This document shows, one piece after another, positions 17,114 to 27,366 of a DNA stretch of 64,000 nt. A program made the position numbers and the translations under genes. Numbering within the stretch: position 1 is the first letter of the stretch; every line of letters starts with the position of its first letter. The notes beneath the pieces are model-generated. The model searched no databases. It saw nothing but the letters and a program-made list of their open reading frames with translations, and was not told the origin of the DNA. The DNA is from Virgibacillus sp. 7505 (GTDB taxonomy: Bacteria > Bacillota > Bacilli > Bacillales > Amphibacillaceae): positions 1-64,000 of the forward strand of contig NZ_NPBF01000011.1 of assembly GCF_002272135.1 (NCBI RefSeq), written 5' to 3'.

Positions 17114-18145
17114 ATGACAACACGTATCGCGATTAATGGATTTGGCAGAATTGGCAGATTGGTTTGCAGACGAGCAATGGAAATGCCTGATTTGGAAATT
17201 GTGGCAGTGAATGCTTCTTATCCAGCAGAAACACTGGCCCATCTTCTCCGCTATGACAGTGTGCACGGTAATTTAGATGCTGACATTTCCGCAGAAGCAG
17301 GTTCAATTGTTTATGAAGGAAAAACGATACGCGTCATAGGGGAACGGAATCCTGCACAGCTCCCATGGAAAGAACTTGAGGTTGATGTCGTCATCGAAGC
17401 GACAGGGAAGTTCTGTTCACAGGAATCAGCATCCCTGCACTTGGATGCAGGTGCGAAAAAGGTTGTCATTACAGCTCCAGGAAAAAATGTGGATGCAACG
17501 ATCGTGATGGGTGTGAATGATCGGATATATGAAAGTGAATTGCATCATGTCGTTTCCAATGCTTCCTGTACGACGAACTGCCTGGCACCTGTTGTTAAAG
17601 TACTGGATGAACGGTTCACGATTAAAAACGGTCTGATGACGACGGTTCATAGCTTCACGAATGATCAGAAGAATATCGACAATCCGCACAAAGATTTGCG
17701 CAGAGCTAGAGGCTGTACACAATCGATCATTCCGACGACAACGGGAGCTGCTAAAGCACTCGCGGAAGTACTGCCGCATCTGAAGGGGAAGCTGCACGGC
17801 ATGGCATTGCGTGTTCCGACTCCAAATGTCTCGCTTGTTGATCTTGTGGTGGATGTGGAAGAATCCGTAACTGCAGAACAAGTCAATGATGCGTTCCGAA
17901 CAGCGGCAGAAACCGACATGAAAGGCATTATCTCTTATAATGAAGAGCCATTGGTCAGTATCGATTATACGACGACAGCGCAATCGGCTACAATTGATGG
18001 TTTATCTACGATCGTTATGGAAGAAAAGAAAATAAAAGTTATTGCTTGGTACGATAATGAATGGGGTTATTCCTGCCGCGTCGTCGATTTGGCACAGCTT
18101 GTCGGCAGCAGTCTTCTAAAGACAGATGGAGCAGAAGTCATCTGA
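17114..18145 (+). CDS. gapB: glyceraldehyde-3-phosphate dehydrogenase, gluconeogenic type
   Basis: This NADP-preferring GAPDH works in the gluconeogenic direction. The 343-residue protein has the Rossmann motif INGFGRIGR and catalytic Cys152 (SNASCTTNC). After the second strand it reads NASYPAETLAHLL, without the acidic residue that selects NAD in the glycolytic paralogue; this is the signature of GapB. No glycolytic gapA operon is in this window. AGAGGAGG lies at 17099-17106, eight bases before ATG. speD follows in the same direction but has its own promoter and leader. Confidence 0.94.
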   Translation: MTTRIAINGFGRIGRLVCRRAMEMPDLEIVAVNASYPAETLAHLLRYDSVHGNLDADISAEAGSIVYEGKTIRVIGERNPAQLPWKELEVDVVIEATGKFCSQESASLHLDAGAKKVVITAPGKNVDATIVMGVNDRIYESELHHVVSNASCTTNCLAPVVKVLDERFTIKNGLMTTVHSFTNDQKNIDNPHKDLRRARGCTQSIIPTTTGAAKALAEVLPHLKGKLHGMALRVPTPNVSLVDLVVDVEESVTAEQVNDAFRTAAETDMKGIISYNEEPLVSIDYTTTAQSATIDGLSTIVMEEKKIKVIAWYDNEWGYSCRVVDLAQLVGSSLLKTDGAEVI

Positions 18146-18181
18146 GTAAAACTCCCGCTTTGAATTATTTTGGACGTATGC

Positions 18182-18380
18182 TTGCCAAACAAGTACAAAC
18201 ACTATATACTACTTTTTGCATGCATTCTTTACTGCATACAAGCATGATGTCAAAACTGTTTTCCTAAAGAATCTATGCAGCAAGTGACTGCTTAAAGGGT
18301 TAGGACCTCTTTGGACTAACTTTCCCCCGTGGCAATTCACGCATTTATTTTTTAGGTAAATATTCAAAGGGGGAAACACA
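18182..18380 (+). promoter_or_regulatory. speD promoter and structured 5' leader (candidate RNA switch)
   Basis: TTGCCA (18182-18187), a 17-base spacer and TATACT (18205-18210) should start an mRNA near 18217, leaving about 160 nt before speD. Possible helices are CATGC/GCATG (18219-18223 with 18242-18246), AAAGGGTTAG/CTAACTTT (18294-18303 with 18316-18323, two-base bulge) and CGTG/CACG (18328-18331 with 18338-18341). TTTCCCCC (18321-18328) is perfectly complementary to GGGGGAAA (18369-18376), which contains the speD ribosome site, and it shares bases with the second helix. That competition is the architecture of a translational switch. I know of no named class for it. Confidence 0.5.
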
Positions 18381-18755
18381 TTGGATACAATGGGAAGACA
18401 TGTTATAGCGGAACTATGGGATTGTAATACAGAAAAACTGAACGACATGCAGCTGATCGAGCAGATCTTCGTAGATGCAGCATTGAAGTCAGGAGCTGAA
18501 GTACGGGAGGTAGCCTTCCACAAATTTGCGCCGCATGGCGTAAGCGGAGTGGTCATCATCTCTGAGTCGCATCTGACAATACACAGTTTTCCGGAACATG
18601 GCTATGCCAGCATTGATGTTTACACTTGCGGTAACATCATTGACCCGAACGTAGCGACTGATTATATCATTGACGCGCTTGAAGCTAAAACTTGTGAAAA
18701 AGCAGAGCTTCCGCGGGGCATGGGTCCTGTGGCAGTACAGCCTAAATCACATTAA
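18381..18755 (+). CDS. speD: S-adenosylmethionine decarboxylase proenzyme
   Basis: SpeD decarboxylates S-adenosylmethionine to provide the aminopropyl donor for spermidine synthesis. The 124-residue proenzyme should cleave itself between Glu62 and Ser63 in ESHLTIHSF, turning Ser63 into the pyruvoyl cofactor. The family-typical start MDTMGRHV means initiation at TTG 18381, eight bases after AAAGGGGG; the ATG at 18390 is too far from it. It follows gapB as in B. subtilis. The ribosome site may be controlled by the leader described separately. Confidence 0.95.
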
Positions 18756-27112: not shown

Positions 27113-27366
27113 TTGACAGCATTCATCAGCTATGATAAGATTGTAAAAGTGAAATAAATATTGATCTGAGACAAGCAGAAGTACCCACTTCTCACCTGAT
27201 TGACGCCGCTTGGCAGTTGGCAGGTACGAAAACAGTGTTCTAGGACAAATGTGGGTGCCGTATGCGTACCGGCATTTTTTTTATGCTTTTTTACAACCAT
27301 GTTTAACTGATAAGCGGCGGATATCTTGTCCCCGATCATAAGTTTCCCAAAATATCCTGGAGGTGG
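27113..27366 (+). promoter_or_regulatory. infC operon promoter and L20 leader
   Basis: TTGACA (27113-27118), 17 bases and TAAGAT (27136-27141) form the promoter. The 200-odd-nt leader has the position and features of the Firmicute L20 autoregulatory leader: a central folded region (TCACCTGATTGACGCC near 27193-27208) and a terminator (TGCCG..CGGCA plus eight T residues, about 27253-27282). In B. subtilis ribosomal protein L20 binds this leader and promotes termination ahead of infC-rpmI-rplT. The assignment is from context and recalled sequence features. Confidence 0.78.

What the first reader, a model, noticed from the sequence alone, without database searches (positions are those of the whole stretch)
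18182..18390. speD leader looks like an undescribed translational RNA switch
Seen: an independent promoter (TTGCCA-17-TATACT) gives a leader of about 160 nt. TTTCCCCC (18321-18328) can pair perfectly with GGGGGAAA (18369-18376), covering the ribosome site of the TTG-initiated speD. The first three bases of that anti-site also belong to the alternative helix AAAGGGTTAG/CTAACTTT, so the two folds compete. Further helices lie at 18219-18246 and 18328-18341. Known: SpeD uses S-adenosylmethionine and makes the donor for spermidine, both plausible ligands. Inference: a SAM- or polyamine-sensing switch; I know of no named class upstream of bacillar speD.
Basis: partly seen in the sequence, partly recalled or inferred. 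Interest (0 to 1): 0.7.

Follow-up and report, generated by a model that had tools for sequence, protein, structure and literature searches.

The report
Conserved pseudoknot leader RNA of speD
The stretch of messenger RNA in front of the spermidine-making gene speD holds a strongly conserved folded RNA that can cover the gene's ribosome-binding site; it recurs before speD in many Gram-positive bacteria, matches no entry of the RNA family catalogue that was searched, and looks like an undescribed genetic switch whose trigger is still unknown.

Summary
A near-invariant core (18292-18332) precedes speD in 78 of 80 named relatives. RNA models find it in 323 of 397 genomes of the order and 192 of 398 of the class, one match in each row listed, and in two other classes of the phylum. 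All 112 matches that I opened lie directly before a speD homologue. Helices P1 and P2 covary in structure-blind alignments. CCCCC inside the P1 loop can pair with an unusual GGGGG Shine-Dalgarno sequence, making a pseudoknot; GGGGG stands before 75 of 79 speD genes against 48 of 505 neighbours. Rfam 15 has no match over threshold and none at E <= 10 in the window's leader; no description was seen in the papers searched. Best reading: a new pseudoknotted leader-RNA class controlling speD translation, most likely a metabolite switch. The ligand is not established and protein-mediated autoregulation is not excluded.

The parts
18182..18210 (+). sigma-A-type promoter TTGCCA-17-TATACT of speD
   Evidence: TTGCAA or TTGCCA with TATACT is the best site in 53 of 79 leaders
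18257..18278 (+). 5' half of the outer closing stem (TGTTT, CCTAAAGAAT, ATGC)
   Evidence: constrained fold of the window, coordinates; lineage-variable
18284..18292 (+). 5' strand of P1 and its extension (GTGA C TGCT)
   Evidence: fold; P1 covaries
18292..18298 (+). conserved joining strand TTAAAGG (J1/2)
   Evidence: mostly near-invariant in A2 and A6
18299..18303 (+). P2 5' strand GTTAG
   Evidence: two-sided and one-sided consistent changes in distant relatives
18304..18315 (+). P2 apex GA-CC-TCTTT-GG-A (internal loop, 2-bp cap, variable loop)
   Evidence: replaced by other loops in distant relatives
18316..18320 (+). P2 3' strand CTAAC
18321..18328 (+). TTTCCCCC; CCCCC 18324-18328 is the anti-SD
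   Evidence: CCCCC in 60 of 61, 40 of 40 and 11 of 11 matches
18329..18331 (+). conserved GTG between anti-SD and P1 3' strand
18331..18340 (+). 3' strand of P1 and extension (GGCA AT TCAC)
   Evidence: covariation
18341..18362 (+). 3' half of the outer closing stem (GCAT, ATTTTTTAGG, AAATA)
18369..18373 (+). Shine-Dalgarno GGGGG (GGGGGAAA to 18376), partner of CCCCC
   Evidence: GGGGG shortly before a start codon in 60 of 61, 40 of 40 and 11 of 11 matches
18381..18755 (+). speD, S-adenosylmethionine decarboxylase, TTG start

Best explanation
The speD leader belongs to an undescribed class of pseudoknotted cis-regulatory RNA. Fold: P1 closes a loop that holds the P2 hairpin (GUUAG/CUAAC) and, just before P1's 3' strand, CCCCC. 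The downstream SD (GGGGG) pairs with that CCCCC, giving an H-type pseudoknot with P2 in its first loop. When this pairing (or the nested equivalent without P1) forms, the SD is hidden and speD is not translated; when it opens, speD is translated. Shown here: conserved sequence, covarying P1 and P2, co-conserved CCCCC and GGGGG, position before speD in every match opened. Inferred: that SD hiding lowers translation; that a small molecule stabilises the pseudoknot in a pocket made by the conserved UUAAAGG, UU and GUG strands; that the switch turns speD OFF. Most likely ligand by pathway logic: spermidine (end-product feedback), ahead of SAM or decarboxylated SAM. I put a ligand-dependent switch of any kind at about 0.66, within it a polyamine at about 0.35 of the whole.
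For: Near-invariant core in 78 of 80 named loci. Covariation on structure-blind MAFFT alignments: A2, 53 cells with both sides changed against 17.5 +/- 7.4 shuffled and at most 21 slid; A4, 94 against 27 +/- 4 and at most 34; A6, 109 against 39 +/- 5 and at most 30. P2 reads GUGGG/CUCAC or GUUGGG/CCCGAC in distant relatives. Distribution 323 of 397, 192 of 398, 7 of 41, 4 of 40 genomes. 61 of 61, 40 of 40 and 11 of 11 opened matches stand before SpeD; outside the order, 158 of 159 element-bearing genomes of the class sample have a SpeD match, the exception having its element at a contig edge. GGGGG SD in 75 of 79 speD against 48 of 505 neighbour ORFs. RNAalifold on A4, unprompted, predicts P2 plus CCCC/GGGG. 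No conserved upstream ORF: of 96 leaders a stop lies in the core in 93, 7 and 79 by frame, and the mostly open frame has a start upstream (within the 60 nt looked at) in 27.
Against: The pseudoknot pairs hardly vary, so they give no covariation support; in A4 the outermost of the five pairs is out of register in 28 of 68 rows. In the pseudoknot-free ensemble of the window's leader P1 has probability 0.00 (P2 0.92, CCCCC/GGGGG 0.99). RNAalifold on A2 predicts P2 but not P1, and on A1 it keeps P1 but pairs the GGG of AAAGGG with CCC of the anti-SD, an invariant alternative that would free the SD. GGGGG also occurs in about 10 % of neighbours' SD windows. No ligand test. Every opened match is at speD, none at speE, speB or a transporter; many metabolite switches serve several genes of a pathway. 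One relative of the window's family (L173) has CCCTC with AAGGTGGAA, a weaker pairing, and L066 gives no match. 81 SpeD genomes of the class sample outside the order have no match. Of seven SpeD leaders judged by eye to lack the element two still have GGGGG.
Confidence: 0.66

Rival explanations
1. Protein-mediated autoregulation: SpeD itself or another RNA-binding protein binds the conserved core and locks the SD-hiding fold, as ribosomal-protein leaders do.
For: Association with speD alone in all 112 opened matches; one match per genome in the rows listed; an Hfq co-purified speD leader fragment in B. subtilis (PMC3574147, passages seen).
Against: The same core serves SpeD proteins that are 70-99 % and others that are only 38-46 % identical to the window's; the conserved bases lie largely in joining strands and the SD pairing, as in compact ligand-binding pseudoknots (recalled); the Hfq paper suggests that its leader peaks are mostly stable structured domains.
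Confidence: 0.17
2. Static translation-tuning or mRNA-stabilising structure without a switch.
For: Stable SD pairing predicted in isolation (0.99).
Against: A static hairpin would not need near-invariant joining sequences together with P1/P2 covariation over several classes.
Confidence: 0.12
3. Within the switch reading: SAM or decarboxylated SAM, not a polyamine, is the ligand (ON or OFF). This is a part of the 0.66 given to the best explanation, not additional to it.
For: SpeD consumes SAM; single-gene translational SAM switches are known at metK (SMK box, SAM-VI; recalled).
Against: The genome carries 19 SAM-I riboswitches, none on speD's contig, so a SAM OFF switch of the common type was available and not used there; no Rfam similarity to a SAM class in the window's leader or L178's.
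Confidence: 0.25
4. Upstream peptide (uORF) attenuation, as for the odc1 motif or (recalled) mammalian SAM decarboxylase.
For: Another polyamine gene is reported with a uORF motif (odc1, PMC8632094, passages).
Against: No frame is both open and started in most of 96 leaders; P2-loop insertions of varied length (L159, L236, L238).
Confidence: 0.02
5. Transcription attenuator at the 18328-18341 hairpin followed by CATTTATTTTTT.
For: Flagged as terminator-like.
Against: Weak 5-bp stem, distant T run, and in relatives this stretch is P1's 3' strand.
Confidence: 0.03

Closest known systems
Spermidine riboswitch (SAM-I variant), PMC10853860
   Same: cis-acting RNA upstream of polyamine genes including speD in Gram-positive genera; genetic OFF switch; spermidine ligand (introduction and passages seen)
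   Different: SAM-I four-stem architecture, rare, found at speE, speB, ldcC and speD; the window's leader has no SAM-I match
SAM-II / SAM-V / preQ1-II type H-pseudoknot riboswitches (recalled)
   Same: SD-hiding H-type pseudoknot; small aptamer
   Different: different sequence, a P2 hairpin in loop 1 and in many members a further hairpin before the SD (seen by eye); no Rfam hit at E <= 10
SMK box (SAM-III) and SAM-VI (recalled)
   Same: translational, tied to one gene of SAM metabolism (metK)
   Different: different junction architecture and gene; no Rfam hit
B. subtilis 'Unknown or speD leader region', Hfq co-purified 79-nt peak, PMC3574147 Table 2
   Same: RNA fragment from the speD-gapB interval
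   Different: no structure, conservation or mechanism given for it in the passages seen; overlap with this element is likely but not checked, as the strain 168 sequence was not on hand

Membership tests
Any Rfam 15 family | covariance-model score above gathering, or a weak match at E <= 10 | tested here: not met
   window: none in the leader; L178: one 20-bit match, E 0.5, to UPD-PKc, gathering 40, upstream of the core; 20 loci at gathering: two tRNAs and one lysine riboswitch, none at the element
Spermidine riboswitch (SAM-I variant) | SAM-I-like aptamer (RF00162 similarity) | tested here: not met
   RF00162 finds 19 copies in the genome, none on contig C11 where speD lies
Spermidine riboswitch (SAM-I variant) | spermidine binding | not testable with these tools
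   needs in-line probing
SD-hiding pseudoknot riboswitch (functional kind) | conserved structured domain supported by covariation | tested here: met
   structure-blind alignments; model-fitted, lean towards the structure
SD-hiding pseudoknot riboswitch (functional kind) | SD is a conserved pseudoknot partner | tested here: inconclusive
   CCCCC and GGGGG co-occur in 60 of 61, 40 of 40 and 11 of 11 matches and GGGGG is enriched at speD, but the pairs are nearly invariant, so pairing itself is not shown by covariation
SD-hiding pseudoknot riboswitch (functional kind) | selective ligand binding that changes expression | not testable with these tools
uORF-controlled leader | conserved open reading frame with start | tested here: not met

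The most novel reading that the evidence does not exclude
An old, widespread pseudoknot riboswitch class of the Bacillota that senses a polyamine-pathway metabolite (spermidine, decarboxylated SAM or SAM) and switches speD translation by drawing speD's own SD into the aptamer: if the ligand is a polyamine, a natural polyamine sensor unrelated in structure to the SAM-I variant and far commoner.
Probability: 0.5. Interest if true: 0.9.

Novelty: new variant of a known kind. Interest (0 to 1): 0.8.

Why it matters
SpeD draws SAM into spermidine synthesis. In the papers seen I met no mechanism for its control in Bacilli (PMC2743287, passages, only lists speD among genes that respond to amino-acid pulses). 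Here is a candidate present in most genomes sampled of one large order, small enough for in-line probing and crystallography, with an immediate genetic test in B. subtilis 168. If it binds a polyamine it would bear directly on whether dedicated polyamine riboswitches exist beyond rare SAM-I variants; PMC10853860 calls earlier claims unconvincing (abstract).

Tried and rejected
Single-sequence folding as proof (z only -1.98). Transcription attenuation at 18328-18341: not conserved. uORF. First SD control in the window: GGGGG before some possible start of 8 of 60 ORFs, several being internal starts and one speD itself, so a neighbour-gene control was added. Viral contigs: 0 matches to an exact pattern. 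Phylum-wide R3 search: 5 of 289, all within the class, none outside it. Genes after speD in 25 loci were only glanced at by the first 45 residues of ORFs; operon structure was not determined.

Literature: the ten text searches are (listings). PMC2864571, PMC6429828, PMC8632094, PMC11109978 and PMC3766115 were searched in their main text for speD or polyamine terms and show no speD motif there; supplements could not be read. PMC4448311's speD row concerns E. coli or Synechococcus. PMC5519356, PMC8208703, PMC10407285: passages only. Not held, so unread: five papers that I recall as Irnov 2010, Weinberg 2017, Yao 2007, Weinberg 2007 and Barrick 2004. Novelty therefore rests on Rfam 15 and these searches.

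Full report
What was checked. The window comes from a genome very close to Terribacillus saccharophilus (SpeD 99 % identical in L001, L002 and L004). gapB (17114-18145) precedes and speD (18381-18755, TTG start) follows the leader. Rfam 15 finds only an L20 leader elsewhere in the window at gathering thresholds and nothing at E <= 10 in 18100-18480.

Conservation. A covariance model, R1, built from 68 distinct leaders of these loci and the window, finds matches in 323 of 397 genomes of the order and 192 of 398 of the class, one in each row listed. In the class sample SpeD is found in 275 of 398. Of the 159 element-bearing genomes outside the window's order 158 have a SpeD match; the exception, G636, has the element at a contig edge; 81 SpeD genomes outside the order lack a match (handles typed). 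In a phylum sample the wider model R2 hits 9 of 378, two of them outside the class; samples of the classes of those two give 7 of 41 and 4 of 40, each including its centre. A third model, R3, found nothing outside the class in 289 genomes.

Gene context. I opened 112 model matches, a part of those found: 61 of 61 (from 63 sources, of which L066 and L183 had no match), 40 of 40 and 11 of 11 stand directly before a SpeD homologue, 70-99 % or 38-46 % identical to the window's. Five of the distant ones were tested and all five are TIGR03330. The 112 are distinct; two repeat named loci. In three genomes with two SpeD genes (G409, G496, G536) the window-like copy shows no element by eye (L248-L250) and the divergent copy has it (L178, L162, L165).

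Structure. P1 (before UUAAAGGG and after CCCCCGUG) and P2 (GUUAG/CUAAC) were counted on MAFFT alignments that know nothing of structure. A2: 94.5 % of cells paired (P1 87.1 %), 53 cells with both sides changed against 17.5 +/- 7.4 in shuffles and at most 21 when slid. A4 (68 leaders, wider): 94 against 27 +/- 4 and at most 34; five inner P1 pairs 96.1 %, the sixth 59.1 %, P2 97.0 %, outer helix P0 70.3 % with changes on both sides in all six pairs. A6 (52 diverse leaders, 11 from outside the class): 109 against 39 +/- 5 and at most 30. The number of pairs with a two-sided change is not above shuffles in A6 (7; 115 of 500 reach it) and hardly in A2 (4; 58 of 500); in A4 it is (14; 0 of 500). 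The rows are related, so these numbers are not probabilities; the slid controls keep relatedness. The model-fitted alignments A3 and A5 agree but lean towards the model. RNAalifold by itself gives P2 but not P1 on A2, P1 with a GGG/CCC pairing on A1, and P2 with CCCC/GGGG on A4; it cannot predict a pseudoknot. In distant relatives P2 reads GUGGG/CUCAC or GUUGGG/CCCGAC with loops of varying length.

The SD pairing. CCCCC lies in the P1 loop; the SD lies outside, so their pairing makes a pseudoknot with P1 and is compatible with P2. CCCCC is present, and GGGGG stands shortly before a start codon, in 60 of 61, 40 of 40 and 11 of 11 opened matches; the exception both times is L173. The five pairs hardly vary, so covariation is silent; on A4 90.9 % of cells pair, the outermost pair being out of register in 28 of 68 rows. 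As a control, GGGGG was found before 75 of 79 speD ORFs and 48 of 505 neighbouring ORFs in the named loci; SpeD leaders judged to lack the element have GGGGG in 2 of 7. For the window, the nested SD-paired fold is predicted at -45.5 and the P1+P2 fold with SD free at -41.0 kcal/mol; in the nested ensemble CCCCC/GGGGG has probability 0.99, P2 0.92 and P1 0.00, so P1 in this leader rests on comparison and on a fold that allows pseudoknots, which was not computed. The window's P1-state stem runs from 18257-18292 to 18331-18362.

Mechanism. Shown: a conserved, covarying leader RNA at one gene, with co-conserved anti-SD and SD. Inferred: closing that pairing stops initiation at speD. Near-invariant joining strands (UUAAAGG, UU, GUG) over several classes suggest a binding pocket rather than a plain hairpin, hence a switch. 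The invariant GGG of AAAGGG could pair with the anti-SD instead of the SD, one possible ON state. The genome holds 19 SAM-I riboswitches but none on speD's contig, which leans away from plain SAM repression; end-product feedback by spermidine is my first guess, by pathway logic only. A protein ligand remains possible because the element serves a single gene.

What is known. A spermidine riboswitch exists as a SAM-I variant (PMC10853860; introduction and passages read); its architecture differs. A speD leader fragment co-purifies with Hfq in B. subtilis (PMC3574147; passages), listed as 'Unknown or speD leader region'. A genome whose SpeD is 97.5 % identical to my recalled B. subtilis SpeD carries the element, so B. 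subtilis probably has it. Ten text searches and five motif or regulon papers held show no description; several older catalogues were not held, so prior mention there cannot be excluded.

Verdict. A real, widespread, apparently undescribed leader RNA class; a translational switch is the best reading; the ligand is open.

Noticed in passing
window 27167-27287: Ribosomal protein L20 leader (RF00558, 63.1 bits), an ordinary known element.
   Followed up: no
L159 1498-1617; L236 1501-1584; L238 1501-1583: The P2 loop carries long GC-rich insertions, so the loop itself is not part of the conserved core.
   Followed up: partly
L248, L249, L250: In three genomes with two SpeD genes the element belongs to the divergent copy, while the copy most like the window's SpeD has a plain leader.
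   Followed up: partly
L173 1389-1456: A relative from the window's own family has a decayed element (CCCTC and AAGGTGGAA), perhaps a natural loss-of-control variant.
   Followed up: no
window 18224-18253, minus strand: Promoter-like TTGACA-18-AAGAAT pointing away from speD inside the leader; could be chance.
   Followed up: no
A1 columns 113-115 with 146-148: RNAalifold pairs the invariant GGG of AAAGGG with CCC of the anti-SD; a possible alternative state that would free the SD.
   Followed up: no
L190 972-1101: Lysine riboswitch about 550 nt downstream of the speD leader element in another lineage.
   Followed up: no
own genome, 19 places: Nineteen SAM-I riboswitches, none on the contig of speD.
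   Followed up: partly
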